A stretch of 35,542 nt of DNA from Chromobacterium piscinae (GTDB lineage Bacteria > Pseudomonadota > Gammaproteobacteria > Burkholderiales > Chromobacteriaceae): assembly GCF_021129175.1 (NCBI RefSeq), contig NZ_JAJOHV010000014.1:1-35542 (forward strand), given 5' to 3'. The notes beneath the pieces were generated by a model. That model searched no databases and had not been told where the DNA came from. It saw only the letters and a list, made by a program, of their open reading frames with translations. A program made the translations under genes and the position numbers. Shown here piece by piece: positions 13,607 through 29,292 of the stretch. The stretch's first letter is position 1. Every line of letters starts with the position of its first letter.

Positions 13607-14335
13607 ATGACCGACATCACTCCCAATGTGCTGGCCGGCGACAAGCGGCTGTCGCCGCTGGCCGAACTGAGCCGGCGCCTGCAACGCATCGATCTGGCCC
13701 CCTTTCTGGTCTACCTGGTGGATCAGGTGGAGGCCGATTTCCTGCCGCTGCTGGCAGAGCAGCTGCACGTGGCCGGCGACGAGGGCTGGCAGCTGGCCGC
13801 CGACGAAGCGCAGCGGCGCGATCTGATCAAGCAGGCGATAGAACTGCACCGCTACAAGGGCACCCGCTGGGCCTTGCAGCGGGTATTGGCCACGCTGGGC
13901 CTGGATGGCCGCGTCAGCGAGTGGTTCGAGTACCAGGGCCGGCCCTTCCATTTCAAGATCGATCTCGACCTGTCCGGCCGCGGCCTGGGCGAAGCCACCT
14001 ACCAGGCGCTGCGGCAGATGCTGGACCAGTACCGCAACGCCCGTTCCCGGCTGGAGAGCCTGGACCTGCGGGTGGAGCTGCGCGAGCGGCTGCCGGTGGT
14101 CGCCGCGGTTTCCGCCGGCGGCGAGGTGGCCAGCGTCTATCCGCAGGCGCGGCGCGAACTGCGCCAGCAGGGACCGCTGCGTCTGGGCGCGGCCCATGGC
14201 GGCGTCGAAACCGTCACCGTTCTGCCTTGGCAGCGGGGACGGCTGGATGGCCAGGCTGCGCTGCGCTGGGGCATGGGCCTGCCGTGCCGGGAGGCGGTCA
14301 CGCTATATCCGCGCCCGCTTCAACTGATTTCCTAA
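13607..14335 (+). CDS. Tail protein I, copy 1 (gpI baseplate wedge/fibre adaptor)
   Basis: A 242-residue gpI-family protein, which in P2-type baseplates joins gpJ to the tail fibre. The family core is present: FLPLLAEQLHVAGDEGWQLA and IELHRYKGTRWALQRVLATL. After about residue 165 comes a copy-specific C-terminal domain (EVASVYPQARRELRQQGPLR). The start at 13607 is supported by the family's N-terminus; the ribosome site (aagg) is modest. No gpJ lies directly in front of it, which is unusual: it follows a fibre and its assembly protein. It is one of four gpI genes here. Its stop codon lies inside the conserved element at 14331. Confidence 0.88.
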   Translation: MTDITPNVLAGDKRLSPLAELSRRLQRIDLAPFLVYLVDQVEADFLPLLAEQLHVAGDEGWQLAADEAQRRDLIKQAIELHRYKGTRWALQRVLATLGLDGRVSEWFEYQGRPFHFKIDLDLSGRGLGEATYQALRQMLDQYRNARSRLESLDLRVELRERLPVVAAVSAGGEVASVYPQARRELRQQGPLRLGAAHGGVETVTVLPWQRGRLDGQAALRWGMGLPCREAVTLYPRPLQLIS

Positions 14336-14378
14336 ATCGCTTCAAAAGCCGCGTCCGCGGCGATTTGCAAATATGACG
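14331..14378 (+). promoter_or_regulatory. Conserved module-boundary element, copy B
   Basis: Second copy of the element: CCTAA at 14331-14335, a GCCGCG-tc-CGCGGC dyad at 14348-14361, and ATGACG from 14373. About 29 of the 40 bases after CCTAA agree with copy C. It precedes the decayed gpW and J-1, as copy C precedes the intact gpW and J-2, so the pair marks the start of the duplicated module. Confidence 0.55.
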
Positions 14379-14609
14379 TGACGATAACGGCTGCCGGCAT
14401 ACCGCGGCTGCTCCGGCTGCCGGTGGCGTGCGCCAGCGCGCGCAATGGAAGTCAGCCGGCGGCGTGATCCACGAAATCCAACGTAGACCCGCTAACAAAA
14501 CCCCTGATCCTGCGTTGCGCCCCCTTGTCGCACGGGTGGGCTCTGCCTGCGTCGGCGCGCCTTGGCTCAGGCTCTGTGCAAGGTTTTGTTAGCGACTCTT
14601 AGGCTGTAA
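14373..14609 (+). pseudogene. Remnant of a gpW (gp25-like) baseplate gene, deleted internally and interrupted
   Basis: The 60 bases at 14422-14481 align without gaps to 23912-23971, the 3' end of the intact gpW (about 78% identical by eye). Translated in the matching frame they read GGVRQRAQWKSAGGVIHEIQ, against GGAHLCAQWKLADGVIRETE in the intact copy. The last codons, ctt-agg-ctg-taa (14598-14609), follow after a 111-bp insertion and match the intact gene's LRL-stop. Roughly 290 bases of the body are gone. The product cannot be made. It shows that the J-1 module once had its own gpW. Confidence 0.8.
14487..14597. mobile_element. 111-bp MITE-like element with 16-bp terminal inverted repeats
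   Basis: Left end acccgctaacaaaacc (14487-14502) and right end ggttttgttagcgact (14582-14597) are inverted repeats matching at 14 of 16 positions. The flanks are cgtag (14482-14486) and cttag (14598-14602), a 5-bp target duplication with one mismatch. Removing the element and one flank restores the gpW reading frame end. There is no room for a transposase, so it would be a non-autonomous derivative. The ends resemble IS5-type termini, but this is an impression only. Confidence 0.75.
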
Positions 14610-14631
14610 GCCAACCGACAAGGACCCGTCC

Positions 14632-15921
14632 ATGAGCCCGAACCTCCCCGATCTGCCCGACTTGCCCATGGTCGATCCGGCCGCCGCCGCCAGCGCCATG
14701 GCCGACGCCTATCTGAAACTGGGCGGCCAGCAGCAATACCCCAAGCAAATGGCGCAACTGTTGACGGAAATGCTGGCCAACCGCCAGCCCGGACTCGCCG
14801 CCGCCGACCTGCCCAAATTCATCGACGACGACCCCAAAACCGTCGCCGCTCAGATGGCCGCCACCTATCAGGACATGGCCGGCAAGCGGCTGTATCCGGG
14901 CCAGGTGGAGCAGCTGCTGATTGATCTGTTCGCCTACCGCGAAAGCCTGGCGCGCGCCGCCTTCAACGATGCCGGAAGGCAAAACCTGGTGGCCTTCGCC
15001 CGCGCGCCGATGCTGGATTACCTGGGCGAACTGGTGGGCGTGGCGCGTCAGCCGGCCCAGGCGGCGACGGCGCGGGTGACGCTGACCTTTCCGGCCTATG
15101 TCGAAGGCGGGCCGAAGCAAGTGATTCTGCCCGCCGGCGCGCGCATCTCCGGCAATGCCGCGACACAGTTCCAGACCACCGCCCCGCTGGCGGTGAATTT
15201 GGCGGACAAGCCGCAGGATCTGGCCTGCGAGGTAGCGGCCACGGTGCCGGGCGAGGCGGGCAATCTGCCGCAGGCGGGCGATCTCAACCAGCTGCTGGAT
15301 GATCCCGGAGTCAAGGTGGAGGTGGCCGGAGCGGAGAAGCCGTGGGGCGGCGCCGAGGCGGAAGACGACGAGCATCTGCGCCAGCGCATCCGGCTGGCGC
15401 CAGAAGCCTATTCCTGGGGCTCGGCCAACCGCTACCGGCTGGCGGCGATGACGGCGGCCGCCGACGCGGCGGATGTGAGGGTGATTTCGCCGCGTCCGGA
15501 CGGCACGGTGCAAGTGGTGGTGCTGGGGAAAGACGGCGCGCCGTCGGCGGAAACCCTGCGCCGCGTCCGGACGGCGCTGGCGGACGACAAGGCCAGGATG
15601 ATCAACGACAGGATAGAGGTGGTACCGGCCGAGGTGGTGGATTACGCGATCCTGCTGGAGGTCGACGTGCTGACCACCCGCATCCCGGACCTGGTGTGCC
15701 GGATGGCGAAGGAACGCTGCCAGGGATACGCGGCCAATCTGGCCCGCAGGCTGGGCGGCGACATCGTGCCGTCGCAGATCAAGACTGCGCTGCACGACAT
15801 CGACGGCTTGTACGACGTGCGCGTGCTGGAGCCGGCCGACAAGCGGGTGCTGTCGTCGTCTCAATGGCCGCGCTGCGCGGCGGTGGAGGTGACGCTGGGA
15901 AGGATGGTGAGCGATGGCTGA
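14632..15921 (+). CDS. Baseplate assembly protein J, copy 1 (with duplicated N-terminal segment)
   Basis: A 429-residue baseplate J-family wedge protein (P2 gpJ/Mu gp47 type). Core blocks: LPKFIDDDPKTVAAQMAATY, AFNDAGRQNLVAFARAPMLD, AEDDEHLRQRIRLAPEAYSW, and the C-terminal GGDIVPSQIKTALHDIDGLY. Residues 15-52 repeat as 67-104 (offset 52), so the start carries an extra copy of the N-terminal helical segment that J-2 lacks. The central beta domain also differs from J-2. AAGGA precedes the ATG at 14632. The last eight bases overlap gpI-2, exactly as J-2 overlaps gpI-3. It appears intact although its gpW is destroyed. Confidence 0.9.
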   Translation: MSPNLPDLPDLPMVDPAAAASAMADAYLKLGGQQQYPKQMAQLLTEMLANRQPGLAAADLPKFIDDDPKTVAAQMAATYQDMAGKRLYPGQVEQLLIDLFAYRESLARAAFNDAGRQNLVAFARAPMLDYLGELVGVARQPAQAATARVTLTFPAYVEGGPKQVILPAGARISGNAATQFQTTAPLAVNLADKPQDLACEVAATVPGEAGNLPQAGDLNQLLDDPGVKVEVAGAEKPWGGAEAEDDEHLRQRIRLAPEAYSWGSANRYRLAAMTAAADAADVRVISPRPDGTVQVVVLGKDGAPSAETLRRVRTALADDKARMINDRIEVVPAEVVDYAILLEVDVLTTRIPDLVCRMAKERCQGYAANLARRLGGDIVPSQIKTALHDIDGLYDVRVLEPADKRVLSSSQWPRCAAVEVTLGRMVSDG

Positions 15922-17242: not shown

Positions 17243-17255
17243 GGAAAACAACCTT

Positions 17256-17738
17256 ATGGCAACCCTGACCCATAGCGGTCGCGCCGCGTTGGCCGCCGCG
17301 CTGGCGTCCCAGACCCTGCATTTCGCCTGGGGCATCGGCCAGGCGGCTTGGGACGACAAGCCCGTTCCCGAACCGATAGACGCTACGGCGCTGGTGTCGG
17401 AAGTAGGCCGCCGCCTGATCACCGAGGTGCGCTTCGTCACCGAAGACCCGGCCGGCGAAATCGTCGTCCCCACCGGCCGCTACCGCGTTTCCAACGATCC
17501 GACGCGCCATTTGCTGCTGCGCATCGCCTTCGAGTTCGGCGACGCGCCGGCCTCGGTGATCCGCGAAGTCGCCGTTTTCGCCGGCAGCAAGACCCAGCCC
17601 GATCTGCCGGCCGGCCAGCGCTACTTCACGCCAGACCAGATCGCCGCCCCCGGCATTTTGGTCGCGCTGGAACGCATCACCCCTATCCACCGTTCGCCGG
17701 CCACCCGCGAAACCTTCGAACACGTCATCTCCCTGTAA
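17256..17738 (+). CDS. Phage tail-tip protein of unknown function (upstream of DUF4815 gene)
   Basis: A 160-residue protein starting TLTHSGRAALAAALASQTLH and containing FAWGIGQAAWDD, GRYRVSNDPTRHLLLRIAFE and IREVAVFAG. This layout, a short N-terminal helix, a beta body and an IREV(A/G)VF motif, is like the baseplate-docking domain of fibre 1 (FTIREVGVFD). It is probably a short adaptor of the same fold without a fibre shaft. It lies between gpI-2 and the DUF4815 gene with GAGGA upstream. No catalytic motif is seen. The exact role is unknown. Confidence 0.6.
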   Translation: MATLTHSGRAALAAALASQTLHFAWGIGQAAWDDKPVPEPIDATALVSEVGRRLITEVRFVTEDPAGEIVVPTGRYRVSNDPTRHLLLRIAFEFGDAPASVIREVAVFAGSKTQPDLPAGQRYFTPDQIAAPGILVALERITPIHRSPATRETFEHVISL

Positions 17739-17749
17739 GGATTGCAGCC

Positions 17750-19690
17750 ATGTCCAACATGCCAGACGGTTACTACAACCGTTTCGATCCGGCCAAGCAT
17801 TTCGACGCCCACCTGTTCCGGGCGAGCTATGCGGTGCAAGCGGCCGAGTTCAATGAAGTCCAGTCCAGCCTGTCCGCCCGCATCCAGGGCGTGGCCGACG
17901 CGATGTTCCGCGACGGCAACGTGGTGCGCGACGCCCGCGTGGTGGTGCACGCCGACAGCGGCCAGGCCGTTTGCGAGGCCGGCGCCGTCTATCTGAAGGG
18001 CGCGGTGCGCGGCGTGGCGCCCAAGCAGCTGACGATTCCCGTGGTCGGCGTGGTCGCCATCGGCCTGTATCTGCAGGAATCGGTGGTGACCGAGCTGGAA
18101 GACCCCAGCCTGCGCGATCCGGCGGTGGGCGCGCGCAACTACCAGGAAGCCGGCGCCGCGCGGCTGAAGGTGGAGGCGGTGTGGGGCTTCGCCGGCGATG
18201 GTCAGGCCGGCGAGTTCTTCCCGGTCTACCAGGTGGAAAACGGCGTGCTGCGCGCCAAGGAGCCGCCGCCGCAGCTGGACGGCGTCACTCAGGCGCTGGC
18301 GCGTTACGACCGCGACAGCTCGGGCGGCTCCTATGTGGTGTCCGGCCTGGCCGTGGCCGCCGCCGCCGATTTGCCCGGCGGCGAGCAGGTCTACACCGTC
18401 AGCGAGGGCCGCGCCCGCGTCAACGGCTACGGCGTGGAGCTGAGCACCTCGCGGCGCCTGGTCTACCCGGCCGCCGCCGATCTGCGGCCCATCGACAGCG
18501 AGCCGCATACCAGCGCCAGCGCCGGCGCCCAGCGCATCAATGTCGACCGCGCGCCCATCGCCGTGATCAGCCAGGTGCGCATCACCAAGGAAGTCACCGC
18601 CACGCTGACCCATGGCGGCTATACCGGCGCCCAGGACCCGCTGCCGGACACCTCCGTGATCTCGGTGCTGGAAGTGAAGCAGGGCGGCACCATCTACGCC
18701 GCCGGCACCGATTACAAGCTCAGCGCCGGCAAGCTGGACTGGAGCCTGCCGGGCAACGAGCCGGCGCCGGGCAGCACCTACACGGTCCGCTACCAATTCA
18801 TCGCCGCGGCGCAGCCCACCCAATCCGACGCTACCGGCTTCACTGTGGAAGGCGCGGTGGCCGGCACCCTGGTGCTGGTCAGCTATAGCCAGAAACTGCC
18901 GCGCATCGACCGCCTGGCCATCGGCGCCGACGGCGAGCTGGTGTGGATCAAGGGCGTGGCCGCCGACTGGAATCCGCAGCCGCCGGCGGTGCCGGCGTCC
19001 TTGCTGCCGCTGGCTTCCGTCATCCAGAGCTGGACCCGCGACCGCTTGGTCAGCAACGACGGCGTGCGGGTGGTGCCGATGTCCGACCTGGCCGGGTTGC
19101 AAGGCCGGCTGGACCGGATGGCCGAGCTGATCGCCCAGCAGCGGTTGACTTCGGACGCTCAGCTGCGCGAAGCCGGCGCCAAGAAGGGCCTATTCGTCGA
19201 TCCCTTCCTGTCCGACGGCATGCGCGACGCCGGCATCGTCCAGGCCGCGGCCATCGTCGGCGGCGAGCTGACCCTGCCCATCGCCGCCAGCGCCTCCTCC
19301 GTGCCCAACGACGTGTCCGACCGGACCAGCCTGGCTTTCAGCCTGGCTCCGGCGCTGGAACAGCCGATGCGCACCGGCAGCATGAAGATCAACCCCTATC
19401 TCGCCTTCGACCCGCTGCCGGCCGCGGTGACGCTGACGCCGGCGCTGGACCGCTGGACCGAGCTGCAGACCAGCTGGGCCAGCCCGCTGACCGAGCGCCT
19501 GACGATAGGCAGCGGCAACCGCTCCAGCGTCAGCCAGACCACCACCGACGCGCTGCTGTCCACCAGCCGCAAGCCTATCGAAACCCTGCGCTCCATCGAG
19601 GTGCGCTTCAGCGTGTCCGGTTTCGGCCCCAACGAAGCCCTGTCCAGCCTCAAGTTCGACGGCATCAGCGTCGCGCCCGCCGCCCAGTAA
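17750..19690 (+). CDS. DUF4815-type phage tail protein
   Basis: A 646-residue protein resembling the DUF4815 family, found beside baseplate and fibre genes in some myophages. The N-terminus is characteristic (DGYYNRFDPAKHFDAHLFRA, then AAEFNEVQSSLSARIQGVAD). The first half continues with beta-rich domains (residues about 60-330), and a helical segment occurs around 455-475 (LQGRLDRMAELIAQQRLTSD). The C-terminal region (KKGLFVDPFLSDGMRDAGIV onwards) recalls large-phage tail-tip proteins. A longer open frame extends upstream to 17348 but overlaps the previous gene; the ATG at 17750 with AAGGA is the real start. It probably builds a stalk or tip in the J-1 module. Confidence 0.72.
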   Translation: MSNMPDGYYNRFDPAKHFDAHLFRASYAVQAAEFNEVQSSLSARIQGVADAMFRDGNVVRDARVVVHADSGQAVCEAGAVYLKGAVRGVAPKQLTIPVVGVVAIGLYLQESVVTELEDPSLRDPAVGARNYQEAGAARLKVEAVWGFAGDGQAGEFFPVYQVENGVLRAKEPPPQLDGVTQALARYDRDSSGGSYVVSGLAVAAAADLPGGEQVYTVSEGRARVNGYGVELSTSRRLVYPAAADLRPIDSEPHTSASAGAQRINVDRAPIAVISQVRITKEVTATLTHGGYTGAQDPLPDTSVISVLEVKQGGTIYAAGTDYKLSAGKLDWSLPGNEPAPGSTYTVRYQFIAAAQPTQSDATGFTVEGAVAGTLVLVSYSQKLPRIDRLAIGADGELVWIKGVAADWNPQPPAVPASLLPLASVIQSWTRDRLVSNDGVRVVPMSDLAGLQGRLDRMAELIAQQRLTSDAQLREAGAKKGLFVDPFLSDGMRDAGIVQAAAIVGGELTLPIAASASSVPNDVSDRTSLAFSLAPALEQPMRTGSMKINPYLAFDPLPAAVTLTPALDRWTELQTSWASPLTERLTIGSGNRSSVSQTTTDALLSTSRKPIETLRSIEVRFSVSGFGPNEALSSLKFDGISVAPAAQ

Positions 19691-19699: not shown

Positions 19700-20908
19700 A
19701 TGCCTCTCAATGCCAACAGCGCCGGCCTGCTCGCCGGCAAGTTCACCATCCCGCCCGGCGTACCGGCCGGCGTCAAGCGCGTCGAGTTCGTCGGCGCCGG
19801 CGGCAGCCGCGGCGAGGCGGTCTTTGTCGGCCAGGGCGAGCTGCAGACCGAGCTGCGCCGCCAGATCACCCGCATCACCGAAACCCGCTGGCAGGTGGAC
19901 CCGCTGGCGCAGACCTTCACGCTGAACGCCGACACCCAGCTGGGCGGCATCGAGCTGTGGTTCACCGCCAAGGGCGCCAGCCCGGTGGCGGTACAGATCC
20001 GCGAAACCACTACCGGGGTGCCGTCCCGCGCGGTGCTGGCCGAAGCCCACCTGCAGCCGGCCGACATCGTCCTGTCCGGCCCCACCCGCATCCAGTTCGC
20101 CGCGCCGGTGAACCTGCAGGGCAGCGTCGAGTACGCGCTGGTGGTGCTGTGCGACGACGCCGACGCCGCGCTGGCCATCGCCGAGCTGGGCAAGTGGGAC
20201 AACAGCGCCGGCCGCTGGGTGACCAGCCAGCCCTACCAGGTGGGCGTGCTGCTGTCATCCAGCAACGCCAGCAGCTGGACTGCGCACCAGGACCGCGACA
20301 TGGCCTTCCGCCTGCTGGCGGCCAGCTACGCGGTGACCGCCAGGACCGTCGACCTGGGCAAGGTCGACGTGAAGAACGCCACCGACCTGATGCTGTTGTC
20401 GCTGTCCGACAGCCCGTCAGCCGCCGCCCGCGTCGAATACAGCCTGGGCCTGCCCGACGGCAGCGCGGTGCAGGTGGCCGACGGCCAGCCGGTGCGCCTG
20501 CCTGCCCCGCTGAGCGGCCAGGTCGGCGTCTCCGCCCGCCTGCTCGGCACCGAGAGCGCGTCGCCGGTGCTGTTTCCCGGCACCCAGCTGGTCAGCGGCC
20601 AGATCGCGCAAAGCGCCGACTACGTCAGCCGTGCCATTCCGGCCGGCAACAACGCCCGGGTGCGGGTGGTGTTCGACGCGCTGATCCCGGCCGGTGCCAG
20701 CGTGACGGCTGCCGCCTCCGGCATCGACGACGGCGATGTTTTCCAGGCGGTGGCCTACCAGGGCAGCAAGCCGCTGGGCGATGGCTGGATGGAAATGACG
20801 CACGAGCTGGCTTCCATCAGCGAGGCGATGGTCCGGGTCAAGCTGACCTTGTCCGGCAACAGCGCCGCCCGGCCGCGCGTGCGCAATCTGCGCGTGATCG
20901 TGCTGTAA
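19700..20908 (+). CDS. Phage tail-tip/fibre base protein (DPLAQTF type)
   Basis: A 402-residue beta-rich protein. Around residues 70-160 it has WQVDPLAQTFTLNADTQLGG, GIELWFTAKGASPVAVQIRE and GSVEYALVVLCDDADAALAI. This DPLAQTF / VxIRE / EYALV pattern is one I associate with structural proteins that accompany DUF4815 proteins in large myophages. The rest is sandwich-like beta sequence ending RPRVRNLRVIVL. It starts nine bases after the DUF4815 gene with AAGGAGA, so the two are probably made and used together. Function beyond a structural role is unknown. Confidence 0.65.
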   Translation: MPLNANSAGLLAGKFTIPPGVPAGVKRVEFVGAGGSRGEAVFVGQGELQTELRRQITRITETRWQVDPLAQTFTLNADTQLGGIELWFTAKGASPVAVQIRETTTGVPSRAVLAEAHLQPADIVLSGPTRIQFAAPVNLQGSVEYALVVLCDDADAALAIAELGKWDNSAGRWVTSQPYQVGVLLSSSNASSWTAHQDRDMAFRLLAASYAVTARTVDLGKVDVKNATDLMLLSLSDSPSAAARVEYSLGLPDGSAVQVADGQPVRLPAPLSGQVGVSARLLGTESASPVLFPGTQLVSGQIAQSADYVSRAIPAGNNARVRVVFDALIPAGASVTAAASGIDDGDVFQAVAYQGSKPLGDGWMEMTHELASISEAMVRVKLTLSGNSAARPRVRNLRVIVL

Positions 20909-20918: not shown

Positions 20919-21212
20919 ATGGACAATCAGACCCCCCATCTGAACCTGCCGCTGCCGAATCCTGGCAACAGTCTGGCCGAGGATGTGCTGCGGATACGCG
21001 ACGCTTTCACCGCGTTGGATCAGAAGATGGCCAGCCTGGACGCGCTGTTGTCCAGCGACGACCTGAACCTGGACACCGTCCAGGAGCTGGTGGCCGCCGT
21101 CAAGCGCGCCCGCGGCGACATCGACGCCGCGGCCGGCCAGTTTACCGAACAGAAGCGCATCGTCGACGCTCGGCTGCAAATCCTGACCGCGCTGGCCAGT
21201 GCCGGCCTGTAA
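20919..21212 (+). CDS. Small helical tail protein (fibre-attachment-like)
   Basis: A 97-residue protein. Its start, TPHLNLPLPNPGNSLAEDVL, is a pattern common at the beginning of fibre proteins that dock to the tail tip. It continues as a helix (RIRDAFTALDQKMASLDALL and VQELVAAVKRARGDIDAAAG). AAGGAGGGGG precedes it. It may be a detached fibre N-terminus serving the repeat fibre that follows. That is inference. Confidence 0.55.
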   Translation: MDNQTPHLNLPLPNPGNSLAEDVLRIRDAFTALDQKMASLDALLSSDDLNLDTVQELVAAVKRARGDIDAAAGQFTEQKRIVDARLQILTALASAGL

Positions 21213-21226: not shown

Positions 21227-22690
21227 ATGTCAAAAGATTTACCGGAATATCGCGCGCAATACCTGGCGCGCATCAAGAGCCAGTTGCTCGGGACCGATCT
21301 TAGCAGCGCCGGCGCCACTGATCTGGTGATGCAGTCGGCGCTGCTCAGGGCGCACAGCCTGGTCAGCAGTCTGGATCTGCAGGACATCGACTATCTGCGC
21401 GACATGAACGGCGCCGCGCTGGAAAACTATCTGCAGCAGGCGGGGAACCGCGCGCGCTTCGAGCAGCAGCTGGCTTCCGCCGGCGTGATGCCGTCCATCG
21501 TCTCCAGCGCCGTCATCATGGCCGCCGTCGCCGACAGTCCGACGGCGATGGCCTCGGTCGCTGGCAGCGCGCCGGCGATGACGGCCATCGTCGGCAATGC
21601 GCCTATCACCAATCTGTTGGTCGGCAACGCCACTGCGATGAAGGCGGTGGCCGCCAGCGCGGTGGCCATGGTCGCCGTGATTGCCTCTCCGGCGGCGATG
21701 GCGGTTGTGGCGGTGTCGTCGACCGCGATGGCGGCGATGGCGTCGTCGCCGACCGGAATGGCCGCCTTGCTGGCGAACGCGTCGGCGTGGGCGAGCGTCG
21801 TATCGTCGCCGGTTGCGATGACCGCAGTGGCCACATCGTCGACTGCGCTGTTGGCCTTGCTGGCGAACCTGTCCGCATGGGCGACCGTTGTCTCGTCGCC
21901 GACAGCGATGGCGGCGGTGGCGGCGTCGTCGACTGCGATGAATGCGGCCATCGTCTCGCCGAGCGCGATGGCGGCGGTGGTGGCGTCCACCATCGCGATG
22001 ACCGCGGTGGCGGCATCGTCCACTGCGATGGTCGTGGTGATCGCGTCGCCGACCATCTTGTCCGCGATGTTGGCCAGTCCATCGGCATGGTCGGCGATTG
22101 TCGCATCCCCGGTTGCGATGAATGCGGTGGTGTCGTCATCGACCACGATGACTGCTGTGATGGCGTCGCCGGCAGCGATGCTGGCGATAGCGGCCTCCTC
22201 AACGGCAATGAACGCGCTGCTGGCGAATGCATCGTCGCTGTCGGCGGTGGTGGGATCCCCGGTCGCGATGGCTGCCGTGGTCGCGTCTCCGACAGCCATG
22301 ACCGCAGTCTTTGCGTCCGCGGCGGCGCGGCAGGCGGTATGGGGGGCGGATGCTGCGGTACAGGCCATCGCCAACGATGCGTCGGCCATCGCCTGGCTGG
22401 TGGCCAACCGGGCGACGACACCGGCGGCGAGGACGGATTCCGCTCCCTACACCTACTACAGCGGCCGGGCCTTGATCCTGCGCCATCAGCAGCTGTCCAC
22501 GCCCAGCCCCAATGCCAGCTGGTTCCATAACTTCGCTACTCGAAGGGCGGGATCGAGCGTTGGCCAGTTGCAGACGCCGCAGCCCGGGTCCAGCGAGGGA
22601 TGGAAAACCAATGTGGTGGCGGTTAACCCGCTCCAGTTCAATAACAACACCGGCCACTCGTCGCAGCTGCAATACGTGGTGATGGACTAA
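21227..22690 (+). CDS. Decapeptide-repeat tail fibre
   Basis: A 487-residue protein in a fibre position. Residues 1-92 are an ordinary helical head (LPEYRAQYLARIKSQLLGTD). Residues 93 to about 392 are some 30 uninterrupted 10-residue repeats with consensus S-S/P-T-A-M-x-A-V-V/A-A (for example SPTAMAAVAA, SSTAMNALLA). Trp or Leu sometimes replaces Met. The last 90 residues are a different, Tyr/Asn-rich domain (YTYYSGRALILRHQQLSTPS) that could be the receptor-binding tip. A 10-residue period without gaps suggests a regular solenoid or trimeric shaft. Similar repeats occur in other phage fibres to my knowledge, but I know of no enzymatic role. GGAGG precedes the ATG. Confidence 0.72.
   Translation: MSKDLPEYRAQYLARIKSQLLGTDLSSAGATDLVMQSALLRAHSLVSSLDLQDIDYLRDMNGAALENYLQQAGNRARFEQQLASAGVMPSIVSSAVIMAAVADSPTAMASVAGSAPAMTAIVGNAPITNLLVGNATAMKAVAASAVAMVAVIASPAAMAVVAVSSTAMAAMASSPTGMAALLANASAWASVVSSPVAMTAVATSSTALLALLANLSAWATVVSSPTAMAAVAASSTAMNAAIVSPSAMAAVVASTIAMTAVAASSTAMVVVIASPTILSAMLASPSAWSAIVASPVAMNAVVSSSTTMTAVMASPAAMLAIAASSTAMNALLANASSLSAVVGSPVAMAAVVASPTAMTAVFASAAARQAVWGADAAVQAIANDASAIAWLVANRATTPAARTDSAPYTYYSGRALILRHQQLSTPSPNASWFHNFATRRAGSSVGQLQTPQPGSSEGWKTNVVAVNPLQFNNNTGHSSQLQYVVMD
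21503..22402 (+). repeat. About 30 tandem 30-bp (10-codon) repeats in a fibre gene
   Basis: The coding repeat has a strict 30-bp period over about 900 bp, with recurring words such as tcgtcgac(c/t)gcgatg and gcgatgaatgcg. Copies are diverged, unlike the tape-measure repeats, but keep the period without indels. The same bias keeps an antisense frame open across 21427-22407, which I regard as a shadow. Confidence 0.85.
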
Positions 22691-22698: not shown

Positions 22699-23376
22699 AT
22701 GAAAATCATTGTTGATTTACAGACCAAAACAGTGGCTGGCGTCACGGTGGATGGCGACTTCCTGGCGGGAAAGAATCAGGCGCTGATTGCGCCGCCGGAA
22801 GATTTCGATATCGATGCGATGGGCGATTACACCTTTGACGGCGCCTCGCTTGTTCGGGATGTCCAGGCGGCGTTGTCCCGCGCCAAGGCCGCCCGCAAGG
22901 CCCGCATCAAGCTGGAAGCCGCCCATCTGATCGAGGCCGACGATTGGAAGCTGCAACGCGCCCGTGAACGCGAGGCGGCCGGCTGGGGCACCCTGGCCGA
23001 GGTGGACGCGGAGCTGGCCGCGCGCGAGTCGATACGTCGCTCGTCCAACGCCGCCGAGCAGGCTGTCGATAGCTTGACCGACGCGGCCAGCGTGCAGGCT
23101 TTCGTCTGGGCGGTCGACGTCGCCGTCGCGGCGCCGCGCCGGATGACGCACAAGCAGTTCATGGCGCGCTTCACCGACGCGGAGATCCAGGCGATGCTCA
23201 AGGCCTTCGGCGACAATCCCGCGCTGCGGCCCTGGTGGGAGCGTTTCAGCCTGGCGCGCGACATCAGCCTGGATGACGCGGTCACCCAGAACGGCGTCCA
23301 GGCGCTGGAGGCGGCCGGCCTGATCGGCAAGGGCCGGGCCGCTGAGGTGCTGGCCAACGCCCCGGCCGCAGTCTGA
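22699..23376 (+). CDS. Fibre-associated protein (probable assembly/accessory protein 2)
   Basis: A 225-residue protein directly after the decapeptide-repeat fibre. A short beta N-terminus (KIIVDLQTKTVAGVTVDGDF) leads to an Ala/Arg-rich coiled coil (about residues 55-125). The C-terminal domain contains RMTHKQFMARFTDAEIQAML and ISLDDAVTQNGVQALEAAGL, a module I associate with proteins encoded behind tail fibres. It is therefore probably the chaperone or accessory of that fibre. It does not resemble the other three assembly proteins. AAGGA precedes it. Confidence 0.5.
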   Translation: MKIIVDLQTKTVAGVTVDGDFLAGKNQALIAPPEDFDIDAMGDYTFDGASLVRDVQAALSRAKAARKARIKLEAAHLIEADDWKLQRAREREAAGWGTLAEVDAELAARESIRRSSNAAEQAVDSLTDAASVQAFVWAVDVAVAAPRRMTHKQFMARFTDAEIQAMLKAFGDNPALRPWWERFSLARDISLDDAVTQNGVQALEAAGLIGKGRAAEVLANAPAAV

Positions 23377-23413
23377 TTCGACCGTCCAACTCATCTGTTC
23401 CTTCGCCTTGCTC

Positions 23414-23540: not shown

Positions 23541-23588
23541 CCTAATCCGGTTTAAAAGCCCCGCCGGCGGCGCTTTGGCACCATAAGG
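23541..23588 (+). promoter_or_regulatory. Conserved module-boundary element, copy C
   Basis: Third copy: CCTAA at 23541-23545 and ATAAGG from 23583. It has the clearest dyad, AAAGC...CCGCC-GGCGG...GCTTT, centred at 23565-23566. It ends three bases before the gpW start at 23591, and its AAGG (23585-23588) is the likely ribosome site. Here the element must therefore lie at the very 5' end of the message, or in its leader. Confidence 0.55.
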
Positions 23589-23590
23589 CC

Positions 23591-23983
23591 ATGACACAGC
23601 TAACCGACATCTCATCCCTGCACTGGCAGCCGGCGCTGCAGCCGCGCGATGCCAGACCCGGCGCCGGCGTCGCCGACATCGTCGAGAACCTGGACGACAT
23701 CCACCAGGCCTTGCGGATCATCCTGGGCACGCCCAAGGGCAGCGATCCGTTGCGGCCGGAGTTCGGCAGCGACCTGTTCCGCTATCTGGACTACCCGGTG
23801 GACCGCGCCCGCCCGCATGTGGTGCGGGAGGCGGTGGCGGCGATCAGCCATCCGCTGTACGGCGAGCCGCGCGTTCAGTTGCTGAAGGTGCTGTTCAGCA
23901 TCGAGGCCGACGGCGGCGCGCACTTGTGCGCGCAATGGAAGCTGGCCGACGGCGTGATCCGCGAAACCGAACTCAGGCTGTGA
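23591..23983 (+). CDS. Baseplate protein gpW (gp25-like, lysozyme-like fold)
   Basis: A 130-residue gpW/gp25 family protein, the small wedge component that primes the sheath at the baseplate. Diagnostic blocks: IVENLDDIHQALRIILGTPK, then LRPEFGSDLFRYLDYPVDRA and VREAVAAISHPLYGEPR. The name recalls a lysozyme-like fold, but the family is structural. This is the only intact copy; the copy before J-1 is a remnant. It is followed by J-2 after 16 bases in the standard W-J-I order. Confidence 0.93.
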   Translation: MTQLTDISSLHWQPALQPRDARPGAGVADIVENLDDIHQALRIILGTPKGSDPLRPEFGSDLFRYLDYPVDRARPHVVREAVAAISHPLYGEPRVQLLKVLFSIEADGGAHLCAQWKLADGVIRETELRL

Positions 23984-23999
23984 ATCTAGGACAAGAGCC

Positions 24000-25166
24000 A
24001 TGAATCAGACGACGACCGACCTTCCGAAGTTTATCGACGACGATCCGCAGCAGATCACCAACGAGCTGATCACCGCCTACCAGAACATGGCCGGCAAGAC
24101 GCTGTATCCGGGCCAGGTGGAACGGCTGCTGATCGACCTGATCGCCTATCGCGAGAGCGTGGCCCGCGCCGCCTTCAACGACGCCGGGCGGCAAAACCTG
24201 GTGGCTTTCGCCCGCGCGCCGATGCTGGACTATCTGGGCGAGCTGGTGGGCGTCGCCCGCCTGCCGGCGCAGCCGGCGCGCAGCAAGGTGAGCTTCACCT
24301 TCGCTGCCGGCGCGCCGCAGACGGTAGTCATCAAGCGGCAGACGCTGGTGGCCGGCCGCGGCGACATCCAGTTCCAGACCATCGATGAGGCGGTGGTGAA
24401 CATCTTGAAGGACCAGGAGGTGCCGGTGACGCTGGCCGTGGTGGCGGTGGAGCCGGGCATGGGCGGCAACGGCCAAGAGCCGGGCGCCATCAATCAGCTG
24501 GTGGACGATCTGAGCGTGAACGTGACCGTCAGGAACACGGAAGTCAGCGCCGGCGGCGCCGACGCCGAGGACGACGAGCGGCTGCGCCAGCGCATCCGCC
24601 TGGCACCGGAATCGTTCAGCGTGGCCGGCAGCGCCGCCGCCTATCGCCACCACGCGCTGCGCGCCGACCAGAGCATCGTCGATGTGGCGGTGGTCAGCGC
24701 CAACAATCTGGAAGAGGGCGGCAAGCCGGAAGATGTGCCGCAGCCGGGCGAAGTCTGGCTGTATCCGCTGGCGAGCGGCGGGCTGCCCAGCGACGACCTG
24801 CGGGCCAAGGTGGCCAACACCTGCAGCGCCGACCGCGTGCGGCCGCTGACCGACAAGGTGTCGGTGAAGCCGCCGGTGGAATTCGCCTACCAGGTTGCGG
24901 CCAGCCTGCAGCTCTACGCCGGCTCCGACGCCAAACAGGTGCTGCAGCGGGCGCAAGACGCGCTGCAAGCCTACCTGCAAACCCAACAGGCCAAGCTGGG
25001 CAACGACATCGTGCCCTCGCAGCTGGTGGCGGCGCTGTCGGTGCCGGGCGTGTACCAGGTGAATCTGCAGCAGCCGGTTGCGGTGCGGAAAGTACCGTCC
25101 TACGGCTGGGCGCACTGCACCAACGGCATCGCGGGACTGACCGTGGACAGCCTCAACAATGGCTAA
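24000..25166 (+). CDS. Baseplate assembly protein J, copy 2
   Basis: A 388-residue baseplate J-family protein, the main wedge subunit. It shares strong blocks with J-1: LPKFIDDDPQQITNELITAY, AFNDAGRQNLVAFARAPMLD and AEDDERLRQRIRLAPESFSV. The C-terminus GNDIVPSQLVAALSVPGVYQ is the family ending. Unlike J-1 it has only one N-terminal helical segment, and it carries a longer middle insert (LEEGGKPEDVPQPGEVWLYP). AGGA lies upstream. It overlaps gpI-3 by eight bases. With the intact gpW in front, this is the complete canonical wedge set. Confidence 0.93.
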   Translation: MNQTTTDLPKFIDDDPQQITNELITAYQNMAGKTLYPGQVERLLIDLIAYRESVARAAFNDAGRQNLVAFARAPMLDYLGELVGVARLPAQPARSKVSFTFAAGAPQTVVIKRQTLVAGRGDIQFQTIDEAVVNILKDQEVPVTLAVVAVEPGMGGNGQEPGAINQLVDDLSVNVTVRNTEVSAGGADAEDDERLRQRIRLAPESFSVAGSAAAYRHHALRADQSIVDVAVVSANNLEEGGKPEDVPQPGEVWLYPLASGGLPSDDLRAKVANTCSADRVRPLTDKVSVKPPVEFAYQVAASLQLYAGSDAKQVLQRAQDALQAYLQTQQAKLGNDIVPSQLVAALSVPGVYQVNLQQPVAVRKVPSYGWAHCTNGIAGLTVDSLNNG

Positions 25167-25869
25167 GGACGCGACGCCGGGCCTGTTGGCGCGGGACGCC
25201 CGCTTCGGCCCGCTGGCCGAGCTGACCCGCCGTCTGGGTGTGCCGCGCGGGGGCGAGGCCAATCCGCAAACGCAAGGCCGTTTCGACACGCTGGATCTGC
25301 TGGTCAACCTGGTGGACTGCGCGCAGCCCAAGCTGCTGCCGCTGCTGGCCGAGCAGTTCCACGTGTCCGGCGACGAAGGCTGGCTGCTGGCCAATGAGGA
25401 AACCCAGCGGCGCGAGCTGATCAAGCGCGCGATCGAGCTGCACCGCTACAAGGGCACGCGCTGGGCGGTGAACGAGGTGTTCCGGGTGCTGGGCATCGAG
25501 ATCGAGCTGAAGGAGTGGTGGGAGCAGAAGGGCTCCGGTCAGCCTTACACCTTCGATCTGACCGCCTGGGCCAACGACAATCTGATGTCGGATCGGGCGG
25601 TGCTCAATCCGGATCTGTATGCCCGCTTGCGGCGAATGATCGAGCACGTCAAACCCGCACGCAGCAGTTACGGCTTCAAGATCGGCGCGGTATTCAACCA
25701 GCCCTTGCGTTGGGCCGGCGCCATGCAGGGGTGGGCGCTGAACCGCAGCGGCGCCGAGTGTCGGCCGAATCCGGCCAAACCTTTATCGCAGCCGCTGCGT
25801 TTCGCAGGCGTTTTGACGTCGCTGGCGGTGGTGCGTTTTCCAATGGAGATGAACCGCGATGAGCAGTAA
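25159..25869 (+). CDS. Tail protein I, copy 3
   Basis: A 236-residue gpI-family protein. The core reads KLLPLLAEQFHVSGDEGWLL and AIELHRYKGTRWAVNEVFRV, with an N-terminal PLAELTRRLG segment shared with copy 1. The C-terminal 60 residues are specific: FNQPLRWAGAMQGWALNRSG and RFAGVLTSLAVVRFPMEM. No good ribosome site is seen, and it overlaps J-2 by eight bases, so translation is probably coupled. It overlaps the next gene by 11 bases. It likely docks the short fibre and beta-helix spike encoded downstream. Confidence 0.9.
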   Translation: MAKDATPGLLARDARFGPLAELTRRLGVPRGGEANPQTQGRFDTLDLLVNLVDCAQPKLLPLLAEQFHVSGDEGWLLANEETQRRELIKRAIELHRYKGTRWAVNEVFRVLGIEIELKEWWEQKGSGQPYTFDLTAWANDNLMSDRAVLNPDLYARLRRMIEHVKPARSSYGFKIGAVFNQPLRWAGAMQGWALNRSGAECRPNPAKPLSQPLRFAGVLTSLAVVRFPMEMNRDEQ

Positions 25870-26575
25870 CCCATTGATTCCGCAGATCCTGGATGGCGGC
25901 TTGGCTGCGATTCAGCTGGCCAGCCATGACGGCGTCCAGCTCAGGATCACCCATGTCGCGCTCGGCGATGCCGGCTACCAGCCGGATGCGGGCCAAACCG
26001 GTTTGCGCAACGAGATCGTTCGTTACCCGATCGCCGATGGCCAGAGCCAGGGCCCGCGCCAGCTGCATCTGACCGCGTTGGCCAGCGACCAGACTGAATT
26101 CTGGGTGCGCGAGGTGGCTTTCATCCTGGAAGGCGGCCAGCCGCTGGCCATCTGGTCCGATCCCAAGCAAGCGTTGGCTTATAAGCAGGCTGGGTTGGAA
26201 CTGCTGCTGGCCTTTGATCTGGCACTGTCCGGCGTGCCGGCGGGCAGTGTGACGGTCCAGTCGACCGGCGCCGGCTTGAGTCTGGCGCTGGCTGAGGAAC
26301 TAGCCACTTTGGGTGCAAGCCAGATCGGCCAGATGGCACGGAGTCTGAATCATGGCGATCAATTGCGCGAGCATCGGCAACGTTTGGATGGCATGTCCGG
26401 AGACATTTCCGCTTTACGACAGCGTACTAGCGGAATGGAAGTGCGCTACCAGCAGCAACTGCAAAGGCTGGAACAGCAAGCGCAAAACCAGCGTGAACAA
26501 CTGGAGTTGGCGGCGAGTATCGCCGCTGCTCTGATCAATCTGCAAAACCTCTATACCAAGGGAGTTCTGAAATGA
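25859..26575 (+). CDS. Short collar/fibre protein with coiled-coil C-terminus
   Basis: A 238-residue protein. Residues 1-135 resemble the baseplate-docking domain of DUF3751-type fibres (LDGGLAAIQLASHDGVQLRI, then THVALGDAGY and FWVREVAFILEGG). After about 150 it becomes a Gln/Leu-rich coiled coil (VRYQQQLQRLEQQAQNQREQ). It lacks a receptor-binding tip of its own, so it may act as a trimeric adaptor to which the following beta-helix protein attaches. It overlaps gpI-3 at the start and the spike gene at the end (ATGA at 26572). Confidence 0.72.
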   Translation: MSSNPLIPQILDGGLAAIQLASHDGVQLRITHVALGDAGYQPDAGQTGLRNEIVRYPIADGQSQGPRQLHLTALASDQTEFWVREVAFILEGGQPLAIWSDPKQALAYKQAGLELLLAFDLALSGVPAGSVTVQSTGAGLSLALAEELATLGASQIGQMARSLNHGDQLREHRQRLDGMSGDISALRQRTSGMEVRYQQQLQRLEQQAQNQREQLELAASIAAALINLQNLYTKGVLK

Positions 26576-27762: not shown

Positions 27763-27777
27763 GATAGAGAGGGTGAT

Positions 27778-28035
27778 ATGTTTGATGAAGTAATAATGCA
27801 AAATCCGATGAGCGTGGTAGCTCAAGATATCCCAGTGGACCAGAAAATGCGGAATATGGCACAGAATTATATTCGCGTATATTACCAGGAGTGGGATCAG
27901 CTTAATATTCTTCGCAAGGGTGATGCCAAGGAGATTGCCAAGATGGGCACTTTTATCGATGCGGTACGGTCTTGGAGTAATGGCGTTGAGCCGGATATGG
28001 CTGCTTTACATGCTATCAAGCCGTTGGATCAGTGA
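27778..28035 (+). CDS. Small protein downstream of the beta-helix spike
   Basis: An 85-residue hydrophilic protein with a gagaggg ribosome site, 15 bases after the spike gene. It contains MRNMAQNYIRVYYQEWDQLN and AKMGTFIDAVRSWSNGVEPD and is predicted mostly helical. I do not recognise it. Its place fits a spike chaperone or accessory, and it shares the spike's A+T-rich composition, so the two probably moved together. Confidence 0.5.
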   Translation: MFDEVIMQNPMSVVAQDIPVDQKMRNMAQNYIRVYYQEWDQLNILRKGDAKEIAKMGTFIDAVRSWSNGVEPDMAALHAIKPLDQ

Positions 28036-28716
28036 AATAGATCAAGTTTTGAAGTGGCTGCGTTTTACATAATATAAGTTTGTTAGCAGGTTGCATGTTC
28101 AAGTATGGCCATTTGATGTAGTTATTTATTCTGTCACTCCTCATGTCACGCCGGGCTTTGCCCGAAGTCCGGCGTTCTTTTCTCCCCCTTCCGTTTGTCT
28201 TTGATGTTTGCAGCCGTAATAATTCTATTATTGGCTCTATCCTTCTAAACCCTTGTGTTTGATTGCGTAATCTTTCCCTGTCTTGTCTTCAGTTTCTTGA
28301 CTGCCATCTTGGCACTCATTCCTTCAAGTTTTCCCTCTCCCGGGTTCCCGGAGTCCCTCCCATGTTTCTCTCCCATACTTCCGTGGCAGACGCACGCGAA
28401 CTATCTCCGTCTTCGCAATCCTCCCGAGCTGAGCAGTACTCCAATTCCCACTCGCCCGTCCAATCGGAACCCGCCAGTCTGAGCTTTCGCTTCCACCCTC
28501 TGGCCGTGCTGCGCGTGGCTATGCACGCCCGCTGACTTCTCTCCGGCGGCAATTCCGCCGCCATTCCTCCCTTCCCATTAACGGACCGCGCAGGCGCTCC
28601 GTCCCATCCCTCATCCCCGTTCAAGCACAAGGAGGTCTCCATGCATCTGCAACCCGGCCTTCGCCCGCGCCGTCAAGCGGCGACGGGCGGATATTCCCAG
28701 CCAGGAGGCGTGAGCG
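28036..28716. other. 681-bp region without a convincing gene
   Basis: The first 110 bases are A+T-rich. A terminator follows at 28148. From about 28180 to 28620 the plus strand is strongly pyrimidine-rich (C and T), with no supported gene in any frame; short open frames there have no ribosome site and unlikely composition. A small hairpin cggcgg-caatt-ccgccg lies at 28544-28560. A strong ribosome site at 28629-28635 leads into a 27-codon ORF before gpI-4. This may be a decayed fibre cassette. Confidence 0.6.
28148..28180 (+). terminator. Rho-independent terminator after the beta-helix spike module
   Basis: ACGCCGG (28148-28154) pairs with CCGGCGT (28169-28175) and can extend by four inner pairs including one G-U. 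It is followed by tctttt. It would stop transcription of the J-2 module before the pyrimidine-rich gap, so gpI-4 and its fibres need another promoter or read-through. Confidence 0.75.
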
Positions 28717-28724
28717 ATGACTGA
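28641..28724 (+). CDS. 27-codon leader-like ORF before gpI-4
   Basis: A tiny ORF (MHLQPGLRPRRQAATGGYSQ and seven more residues) has an unusually strong ribosome site, aaggagg at 28629-28635. It ends eight bases inside gpI-4, whose own site ggaggcg lies within it. It may couple translation into gpI-4 or be the remains of a longer gene. No homology is recognised. Confidence 0.3.
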   Translation: MHLQPGLRPRRQAATGGYSQPGGVSDD

Positions 28725-29292
28725 CGCCATTCCCTCCATTCTGGCGCGCGACCAGCGCTTCGGGCCGCTGTCCCGGCTCACCGAGCGGGTGTCGGGCCTT
28801 GATCTGTCGGTGTTCCTGGTCAACTTGATCGACACCGTGCAGCCGGACGTGCTGCCGCTGCTGGCCGAGCAATTCCATATCCACGGCGAGGAAGGCTGGA
28901 CGCTGGCCGAGTCCGACGACGCCCGCCGAGCGTTGTTGCACAGCGCCAATGAGCTGCACCGCTATAAGGGCACGCCATGGGCGATACGCGAGGTGATCCG
29001 CCGCCTGGGCCTGGGCGAAGTGACGTTGATCGAGGGCCTGGCCGGCCAGCAGCGCAACGGCCTCATCCGCCGCAACGGCTACTACGTCCACGGCGACCCG
29101 ACCAGCTGGAACCAATACCGGGTGCTGCTGAGCCAGCCCATCACCAACGACCAGGCCGCCCAGCTGCGCCGCATGCTGGCGCTGTACGCGCCGGCGCGCT
29201 GCCAGCTGGCCAGTCTGGAGTACCAAGCCGTGGCCAACCGCCACAACGGCGCCATTCGCCGCAACAAGCAATTCAACCGAGGAACCGCCTGA
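28717..29292 (+). CDS. Tail protein I, copy 4
   Basis: A 191-residue gpI-family protein of canonical length: VLPLLAEQFHIHGEEGWTLA, then ANELHRYKGTPWAIREVIRR. The C-terminal half (RNGYYVHGDPTSWNQYRVLL, LRRMLALYAPARCQLASLEY) is the standard gpI end, without the added domain of copies 1 and 2. No gpW or gpJ is directly in front; it follows a 681-bp non-coding gap. It overlaps the fibre-3 gene by one base (TGATG), the usual I-H arrangement of P2-like phages. Confidence 0.92.
   Translation: MTDAIPSILARDQRFGPLSRLTERVSGLDLSVFLVNLIDTVQPDVLPLLAEQFHIHGEEGWTLAESDDARRALLHSANELHRYKGTPWAIREVIRRLGLGEVTLIEGLAGQQRNGLIRRNGYYVHGDPTSWNQYRVLLSQPITNDQAAQLRRMLALYAPARCQLASLEYQAVANRHNGAIRRNKQFNRGTA

What the first reader, a model, noticed from the sequence alone, without database searches (positions are those of the whole stretch)
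13607..29292. Four gpI adaptors and two baseplate J genes in one tail locus
gpI copies begin at 13607, 15914, 25159 and 28717, and J copies at 14632 and 24000. Both J-I junctions overlap by exactly eight bases, which points to module duplication. Each gpI has a different C-terminal part next to a different fibre group. A single baseplate would normally need one J and one I, so the particle may mix wedges, or one locus may make alternative particles with different fibres.
Basis: partly seen in the sequence, partly recalled or inferred. Interest (0 to 1): 0.78.

Follow-up and report, generated by a model that had tools for sequence, protein, structure and literature searches.

The report
Tailocin with stacked fibre adaptor modules
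A headless phage-tail gene cluster in Chromobacterium carries two versions of a baseplate protein and four fibre-holding adaptors on one shared tail, which suggests that one bacterial weapon can be built with several different target-recognising ends.

Summary
In detail: four Tail_P2_I (gpI) and two Baseplate_J genes lie in one tail locus, all full length. It is a headless contractile-tail (tailocin-type) locus, found in 15 of 19 Chromobacterium genomes. The 8-bp J-I overlap is no sign of duplication; single-J phages share it. The four gpI are four old lineages stacked beside their own fibres, not copies of each other. The two J share a duplicated native N-terminal half, but J1 is a chimera: beyond residue 234-259 it matches the J of L108, a single-J locus that also carries I2-like and DUF4815 genes. 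The joint sits at a domain boundary of a predicted structure. A decayed gp25 (W) copy lies before J1 here and before J2 in a relative, so one W probably serves both J. I read this as one trunk with several wedge-fibre sets. Whether one particle mixes them or separate particles form is unresolved; I favour separate baseplates for J1 and J2. No particle has been seen.

The parts
43..1377 (-). left flank: periplasmic binding protein (host gene)
   Evidence: Pfam PF13458; same gene beside the locus in 5 further genomes
1335..1700 (-). Mor-family transcription activator, divergent from the tail genes
   Evidence: PF08765 E 3e-32; beside the trunk genes in 15 of 15 genomes
1888..2346 (+). Gp37-family tail protein
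   Evidence: PF09646
2540..3967 (+). tail sheath
   Evidence: PF04984, PF17482
3970..4494 (+). tail tube
   Evidence: PF04985
4666..4920 (+). tail assembly chaperone
   Evidence: PF10109
5183..8020 (+). tape measure protein
   Evidence: PHROG hits
8052..8966 (+). gpU
   Evidence: PF06995
8970..9185 (+). gpX
   Evidence: PF05489
9170..10228 (+). gpD hub
   Evidence: PF05954
10225..10902 (+). gpV spike
   Evidence: PF04717
10932..12893 (+). fibre 1
   Evidence: PF12571
12924..13523 (+). fibre 1 assembly protein (tfa1)
   Evidence: PHROG 8983 (unknown function) and 8258 (fibre assembly, E 8e-6)
13607..14335 (+). I1, gpI adaptor of the fibre 1 module
   Evidence: PF09684; beside fibre 1 or tfa1 in 15 of 15 loci
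14415..14482 (+). decayed remnant of a second W gene (W bases 315-382)
   Evidence: 68 bp, 78% identity, 0 of 200 shuffles as good
14632..15921 (+). J1, chimeric baseplate J: native type up to residue about 234-259, L108 type after
   Evidence: PF04865
15914..17242 (+). I2, gpI adaptor with a long C-terminal part
   Evidence: PF09684; 65% identity to the L108 gpI
17256..17738 (+). 160-aa protein ahead of DUF4815
   Evidence: 89-99% identity in the five other J1 genomes
17742..19690 (+). DUF4815 (VrlC-like) protein; exact start uncertain, the longest open frame begins at 17348
   Evidence: PF16075 E 8e-190
19700..20908 (+). second half of a VrlC-like protein
   Evidence: PHROG 877 and 5986
20919..21212 (+). 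small protein of the J1 cassette, present in the six J1 loci
   Evidence: PHROG 14493
21227..22690 (+). fibre 2
   Evidence: PHROG 7809
22699..23376 (+). unknown protein closing the J1 cassette, present in the six J1 loci
   Evidence: PHROG 25252
23591..23983 (+). W (gp25), the only intact copy
   Evidence: PF04965
24000..25166 (+). J2, native baseplate J
   Evidence: PF04865; present in 15 of 15 loci
25159..25869 (+). I3, gpI adaptor of fibre 3
   Evidence: PF09684
25859..26575 (+). fibre 3
   Evidence: PF12571 E 1e-5, PHROG 3737
28717..29292 (+). I4, gpI adaptor of fibre 4; closest to the gpI of PhiKM and KP12
   Evidence: PF09684; 54.5% to KP12 and PhiKM
29292..31655 (+). fibre 4; start ATG overlaps the I4 stop by one base
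   Evidence: PF07484; sequence
31667..32245 (+). fibre 4 assembly protein
   Evidence: PF02413
32479..33849 (+). fibre 5, N-terminal part 75% identical to fibre 4
   Evidence: PF21882
33846..34307 (+). fibre 5 assembly protein
   Evidence: PHROG 188
34385..35287 (-). right flank: outer membrane efflux protein (host gene)
   Evidence: PF02321; beside the locus in 12 of 15 genomes

Best explanation
This is a genus-conserved, headless contractile-tail locus (tailocin type) that builds one shared trunk (sheath, tube, ruler, hub, spike) and one shared W, and can finish it with several wedge-fibre sets. In known tails each wedge is W plus two J plus one gpI, and the fibre binds gpI. Here the four gpI act as fibre-specific adaptors, each paired with its own fibre. 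J2 is the native J and serves I3, I4 and I1. J1 arose when the native J N-terminal half, which in known baseplates forms the helical core bound by W, was joined to the C-terminal half of a foreign J together with that J's gpI (I2) and DUF4815 complex. This lets the foreign fibre set dock on the native trunk. I think J1/I2 and J2 baseplates mostly form separately, so a producer releases a mixture of particles. Shown from sequence: gene content, conservation, chimera, W remnants, gpI-fibre linkage. Inferred: assembly, particle mixture, killing.
For: gpI-fibre linkage: I1 beside the fibre 1 module in 15 of 15 loci, I3 beside fibre 3 in 14 of 14, I4 beside a fibre 4/5 N-terminus in 10 of 10, I2 beside DUF4815 in 6 of 6; in G009 I3 and fibre 3 are missing together. 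Three gpI with a single J in 4 genomes and two with a single J in 5, so several gpI per J is usual here. J1 never without J2 (6 of 6). J1 chimera: of 174 informative sites, 56 native and 16 foreign left of the break, 11 native and 91 foreign right of it; from residue 241 on, 40-residue windows are 67-87% to L108 but 7-65% to four J2, 35 of 40 values at or below 45%. Break at 234-259; in the model the beta domain ends at 241 and the C-terminal domain starts at 246. Sequence and fold match R2 pyocin Tri1 (PA0618) and Mu gp47. W remnants before J1 in G000 and G012, before J2 in G009, after the J1 cassette in G008 and G017: 0 of 200 shuffles each; 4 of 4 control gaps beside intact W negative. Selection: 56 of 57 dN/dS values at or below 0.43. 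A separate lineage (G185) has four J-I pairs with one W, one V, one sheath and one tube. Literature: (J)2-I wedge, fibres bind gpI, the gp25-like protein locks the helical tip (PMC10811340, section 11 part 1).
Against: No expression, particle or killing data. No holin or endolysin gene was recognised in the locus, so release is unexplained (only weak endolysin-like PHROG matches inside the ruler protein). G014 shows no W remnant (157 of 200 shuffles as good). The C-terminal part of I2 could not be modelled (pLDDT under 50 beyond residue 150 almost throughout). Foldseek TM-scores of the J1 model to whole J chains are low (0.26-0.49 by query length in the listed whole-chain matches), with rmsd above 10 in most, so domain placement differs; the R2 pyocin C-terminal domain fits well (TM 0.82 by target). 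No complex prediction could be run, so J1 with J2 in one wedge or baseplate is not excluded. In the phage Milano fibres bind J as well as gpI (PMC10811340), so gpI may not be the only fibre holder. The J1 tree position rests on the native half and long branches make it unsure. The dN/dS of 0.65 (J2, G000-G017) is unexplained and may reflect recombination. Two of four control phage J also lean to the foreign side right of the break, far more weakly (15 to 8 and 16 to 8 sites).
Confidence: 0.57

Rival explanations
1. Mosaic baseplates: J1 and J2 wedges, and the different gpI, co-assemble in the same six-wedge baseplate, so each particle carries several fibre types at once.
For: J1 keeps the native N-terminal half, 75-84% identical to J2 of the same genome over the first 88 residues of J2; one W serves both; all genes run in one direction, and no plus-strand terminator-like site lies between J1 and J2.
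Against: The C-terminal part of J, which in known tails helps link neighbouring wedges (PMC10811340), is foreign in J1. A review states that contraction is triggered by binding of multiple fibres (PMC10598620, passages), which would weaken a mixed particle.
Confidence: 0.26
2. J1 and J2 form an obligate heterodimer inside each wedge.
For: Wedges hold two J copies (PMC10811340); J1 is always found with J2 (6 of 6).
Against: 9 of 15 loci have J2 without J1; the donor-type locus L108 has one J of the J1 C-terminal type in the stretch held.
Confidence: 0.07
3. The extra J and gpI modules are relics of past recombination without function.
For: The locus holds clear relics (W remnants) and loses modules (G009 lacks I3 and fibre 3).
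Against: W, J and gpI have full length wherever present in the 15 loci; 47 of 57 dN/dS values are at or below 0.30; the J1-I2-DUF4815 module is kept in 6 genomes while the redundant W decayed.
Confidence: 0.06
4. Two tail loci of two phages lie in tandem or fused, each normally with its own trunk.
For: J1-I2-DUF4815 resembles a foreign phage module.
Against: The locus holds one sheath, tube, ruler, hub, spike and intact W. The joint locus recurs in six genomes, with the efflux gene on its right side in all six, which also speaks against misassembly.
Confidence: 0.04

Closest known systems
R-type pyocins and other R-tailocins
   Same: Headless contractile tail at a fixed chromosomal site; J and gpI wedge proteins; J matches PA0618 of R2 pyocin by sequence and fold.
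   Different: Several J and gpI with several fibre sets instead of one of each; no lysis gene recognised in the locus; Mor-type activator.
BcepMu-like phages (PhiKM is filed so) and relatives KP12, Bise, Komp, AFS-2018a
   Same: Gene order U-X-D-V-W-J-I, usually an 8-base J-I overlap, I4 54.5% to PhiKM and KP12.
   Different: One J and one gpI place per record in the searches made.
Single-J tail loci elsewhere in Chromobacterium genomes (presumed prophages; head genes not checked)
   Same: Related W, J and gpI; gpI of I4 type in five and I3 type in two.
   Different: One gpI each, where the tailocin locus stacks several.
Fibre-switching phages (Mu invertase, recalled; KP12 has a DNA-invertase)
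   Same: One tail with alternative fibres.
   Different: No invertase among the scanned frames and no inverted repeat of 22 bases or more with a 14-base exact seed in 10900-34400; here gpI and J modules are stacked.
eCIS with Tail_P2_I adaptors (PMC12923769, passages)
   Same: Tail_P2_I named as putative fibre adaptor; some loci have several fibres.
   Different: That paper speaks of up to four fibres on a Tail_P2_I adaptor; here several adaptors and two J share one trunk.
G185-type records (IMG/VR 2728369616 and relatives)
   Same: Four J-I pairs, one with DUF4815, on one trunk with one W.
   Different: Another phage lineage (J 279-343 aa, 35-49% identical to each other in the first third); host not named by my tools.

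Membership tests
R-type tailocin | contractile sheath and tube, hub, spike, baseplate | tested here: met
   Pfam and PHROG matches
R-type tailocin | no capsid, portal, terminase or integrase in the locus | tested here: met
   None among 37 window frames scanned with Pfam and 30 with PHROGs. PHROG labels 'head closure' (on the Pfam tail tube) and 'head decoration' or 'structural' (on fibres, weaker than other hits) do occur. Frames 2343-2537 and 17256-17738 were not scanned.
R-type tailocin | fixed chromosomal site | tested here: met
   Efflux gene on the right in 12 of 15 genomes (contig ends too soon in G001, G013, G018), Mor gene on the left in 15 of 15, periplasmic binding protein in 6; rRNA operon on the left shown in G009 and G005
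R-type tailocin | lysis genes for release (usual, not universal) | tested here: inconclusive
   None recognised in the scanned frames; small frames and the rest of the genome were not searched for them
R-type tailocin | purified particle that kills related strains | not testable with these tools
   needs a bench test
(J)2-gpI-W baseplate wedge | Baseplate_J, Tail_P2_I and gp25 families; J with the wedge fold | tested here: met
   PA0618 by sequence E 1e-94 with a 29-row profile; J1 model pLDDT 84
(J)2-gpI-W baseplate wedge | one J and one gpI per particle type | tested here: inconclusive
   two J and four gpI genes; which enter one particle is unknown
Invertible fibre cassette | invertase gene and inverted repeats | tested here: not met
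   no invertase among the scanned frames; 0 inverted repeat pairs of at least 22 bases
Recent module duplication of gpI | the four gpI more alike to each other than to gpI from elsewhere | tested here: not met
   four clades; I4, I3 and I1 each group with gpI of single-J loci

The most novel reading that the evidence does not exclude
A polyvalent tail architecture: one trunk and one W carry interchangeable wedge chassis (J) and fibre adaptors (gpI), extended by joining the native J N-terminal half to a foreign J-gpI-fibre module at a domain boundary. It has arisen at least twice (Chromobacterium tailocins and the G185 lineage with four J-I modules), and one cell makes particles of several specificities from one operon.
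Probability: 0.4. Interest if true: 0.8.

Novelty: new variant of a known kind. Interest (0 to 1): 0.66.

Why it matters
It shows how a contractile killing particle could gain target range by adding whole wedge modules rather than swapping fibre tips, and nature marks the joint: the break inside J1. That makes an open question (which part of a wedge must match the trunk and which the fibre) directly testable by comparing the natural J1, J2 and gpI. The decayed W copies point to W as the shared part.

Tried and rejected
Module duplication from the 8-base overlap: rejected, the overlap is common in single-J relatives. J1 as a plain paralogue: first trees put J1 inside the tailocin J clade; adding L108 showed that this came from the native N-terminal half and the lack of a donor. 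J1 as a plain import: rejected by the same comparison. Invertible fibres: no invertase, no inverted repeats. Phage rather than tailocin: no head genes recognised at the site. Separate transcription of modules: seven terminator-like sites against 10.8 expected and four promoter-like sites against 2.2 in 12800-29400, so no claim; the one at 28148-28175 is noted. Structure of I2: too poor beyond residue 150. Host of the G185 records: no close match among phages or plasmids; its sheath is 66-68% like that of Pseudomonas and Escherichia phages (best 8 of 409 records), which does not name the host. Donor type L108: one protein of its record matched a PHROG named portal protein, which I do not lean on; its host is unknown.

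Literature: seven searches (listings) showed no paper on a Chromobacterium tailocin or on several gpI per tail; the library holds open-licence papers only. Papers opened: PMC10811340 (passages and section 11 part 1 of 2), PMC12923769, PMC10598620 and PMC10697841 (passages only; the last names violacein and a type VI system for C. violaceum). Not tested: promoter use, complex prediction, lysis genes elsewhere, competition of I1, I3 and I4 for J2, head genes of the single-J Chromobacterium loci.
Full report
What was checked. The window is one whole contig (35542 bp) of a Chromobacterium genome; the genus is known because two same-genus genomes, G012 and G008, match named contigs of C. vaccinii MWU205 and C. 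alticapitis in length and content. I call them I1, J1, I2, J2, I3 and I4 as in the parts list.

What the locus is. From left to right: a Mor-type activator (opposite strand), Gp37, sheath, tube, chaperone, ruler, U, X, D, V, then the baseplate and fibre modules, between a periplasmic binding protein and an outer membrane efflux protein. No capsid, portal, terminase or integrase was recognised among 37 window frames scanned with Pfam and 30 with PHROGs; two frames (2343-2537, 17256-17738) were not scanned, and PHROG's 'head closure' and 'head decoration' labels fall on the tail tube and on fibres. The efflux gene is on the right in 12 of 15 genomes with the locus (in the other three the contig ends too soon) and the Mor gene on the left of the trunk in 15 of 15; the periplasmic binding protein is there in six. 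An rRNA operon lies on the left in G009 and G005. It is best read as a headless tail locus of tailocin type. No lysis gene was recognised in it.

How it varies. Of 19 genomes of the genus, 15 have the locus. Six carry J1 and J2 (G000, G012, G014, G017, G008 with four gpI, G009 with three). Four have J2 with I1, I3 and I4 (G015, G006, G003, G004). Five have J2 with I1 and I3 (G001, G002, G005, G013, G018); in these the trunk genes lie at a second place. In G007, G010, G011 and G016 the family searches showed no such set. Totals over the 15: W 15, J2 15, I1 15, I3 14, I4 10, J1 6, I2 6. J1 was never seen without J2. Module order differs: in G017 and G008 the J1 module precedes the fibre 1 module; in G009 W stands before J1 rather than J2. 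Each gpI stays with its fibre: I1 with the fibre 1 module in 15 of 15, I3 with fibre 3 in 14 of 14, I4 with a fibre 4/5 N-terminus in 10 of 10, I2 with DUF4815 in 6 of 6. In G009 I3 and fibre 3 are lost together, and J2 there still ends in ATGGCTAG, a likely trace of the lost I3 start.

Where the gpI come from. In a tree of 59 gpI (first 170 residues), I4 groups with PhiKM, KP12, Komp, AFS-2018a and five single-J Chromobacterium loci, I3 with two single-J Chromobacterium loci, I1 with a Salmonella prophage gpI, and I2 is a deep branch (several long branches, so the deep order is unsure). So they are four old lineages brought together. The single-J loci show that I4-like and I3-like gpI replace one another one for one, where the tailocin has stacked them. 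Elsewhere several gpI in one locus are rare: only this genome among 25 with a match in the order sample (150 searched) and among 29 in the class sample (369 searched); and one place per record in 165 of 165 phage records for I3 and 10 of 10 for I4 (only relatives of the query are seen).

Where J1 comes from. Trees without a donor placed J1 inside the tailocin J clade. A search with DUF4815 found L108, a locus with one W, J and gpI in the stretch held and DUF4815; its gpI is 65% like I2 in the alignment and its DUF4815 77% like ours. From J1 residue 241 on, L108 is 67-87% identical to the window's J1 in 40-residue windows (57-87% over three J1 tried), while the four J2 tried are at 7-65%, 35 of 40 values at or below 45%. 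Before that the native type is closer: G017 J2 in 13 of 13 windows from residue 46, the window's own J2 in 12 of 13. With G017 J2 and L108 as the two parents, J1 of the window has 174 informative sites; the best break is at 234-259 with 56 native and 16 foreign sites on the left, 11 native and 91 foreign on the right; the other five J1 give breaks between 233 and 259. With four other phage J in place of L108 the right side reads 15 other to 8 native, 16 to 8, 18 to 17 and 11 to 16; the first two lean the same way but far more weakly. J2 of the window is mainly native on both sides (42 to 20, 66 to 8). The break covers the conserved stretch AEDDE.LR.RI.LAPE. The predicted J1 structure (pLDDT 84) has helices to residue 134, a beta domain 143-241 and a C-terminal domain from 246, so the joint is between domains. 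Solved relatives by sequence and fold are R2 pyocin PA0618 and Mu gp47 among others, with low whole-chain TM-scores and a good fit of the PA0618 C-terminal domain. In G014 the J2 carries the J1-type N-terminal extension, so exchange has also gone the other way.

The W remnants. If W and J were duplicated together, W-J1 and W-J2 should once have stood in one locus. In the window, the 296-base gap before J1 holds 68 bases matching the 3' part of W at 78% (14415-14482). G012 has a 28-base match in the same gap. In G009, where the intact W stands before J1, the gap before J2 holds 49- and 40-base matches. G008 and G017 have the first 34 bases of W after the J1 cassette, and G008 also a 78-base piece of V. 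For the best W match in each of these five gaps, 0 of 200 shuffles scored as high; G014 is negative (157 of 200), and four gaps beside an intact W are negative (100 to 163 of 200). Different species lost different W copies and all six kept both J. I infer that W is the shared part and that J1 and J2 are not redundant.

Selection. Ten genome pairs gave 57 dN/dS values for W, J1, J2 and I1-I4: 47 at or below 0.30, 56 at or below 0.43, and one of 0.65 (J2, G000-G017, where recombination is possible). There is no sign that a J or gpI is decaying.

How it works. In known contractile tails the wedge holds two J and one gpI; their N-terminal parts form a helical structure whose tip is bound by the gp25-like W, the globular parts link wedges and hold fibres, mostly through the gpI, in phage Milano through J as well (PMC10811340, section 11 part 1). 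Placed on this plan, J1 keeps the part that must fit the trunk and W, and brings a foreign part that must fit I2 and the DUF4815 complex. I therefore expect J1-I2 wedges to build on the same trunk as J2 wedges. Because the wedge-linking part of J1 is foreign, I think separate J1 and J2 baseplates more likely than mosaic ones, but this is inference. I1, I3 and I4 have only J2 to use in four genomes; whether they mix or compete on one J2 baseplate is open.

A second case. Of 94 loci from two contig scans, 72 are not of the Chromobacterium type (judged by identity to the window); five of these (L153-L157) hold more than one J in the stretch held, all of one lineage. The record G185 has four J-I pairs, one with DUF4815, and one each of V, W, sheath and tube. 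Its J are 35-49% identical to each other in the first third and 21-32% in the last third, again with the N-terminal part held back. This suggests that stacking wedge modules on one trunk has happened more than once.

Novelty. The parts are known (tailocin, wedge, fibre adaptor); the stacking of gpI adaptors, the chimeric second J and the shared W were not found described in seven searches of an open library. I rate it a new variant of a known kind.

Noticed in passing
G001:C24/C25, G002:C68/C5, G005:C1, G013:C5/C56, G018:C62/C18/C68 (L043-L052, L080-L085, L088): In five Chromobacterium genomes the tailocin is split between V and W: trunk genes at one place (beside an rRNA operon in G005), W-J-gpI-fibre genes at another (beside the efflux gene in G002 and G005); about 300 kb apart in the single-contig genome G005 if it is circular.
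   Followed up: yes
L178/L179 (IMG/VR 2728369616), L153-L157, L181-L186: A separate phage-tail lineage with four J-gpI modules on one trunk; its host is not known to me.
   Followed up: partly
J1 residues about 15-52 and 67-105 (window 14632-15921): The J1 N-terminus holds a second, diverged copy of its helical motif (DP..MA..Y...G...YP.Q..QLL), read from the alignment; absent from J2 except in G014.
   Followed up: no
G000:C12:147725-148394: Another contig of the genome seems to end inside a Baseplate_J gene, so a further contractile element may be cut by the assembly.
   Followed up: no
G000:C57:30336-31097: A J gene in a 432-aa frame, with no Tail_P2_I match in the genome outside the window; it must use a diverged gpI or none.
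   Followed up: no
window 28148-28175: A 12-pair stem with a T-rich tail just ahead of the I4-fibre 4 module; terminator-like sites overall are no more frequent than chance.
   Followed up: no
G014:C1:1803909-1806104, G017:C1:3480847-3486856: Several partial copies of fibre 4/5 pieces downstream of fibre 4, like a store of fibre segments.
   Followed up: no
window 17256-17738 and 17348-19690: The conserved 160-aa frame overlaps the start of the longest DUF4815 frame; in G185 they are two separate frames, so DUF4815 probably starts near 17742.
   Followed up: partly
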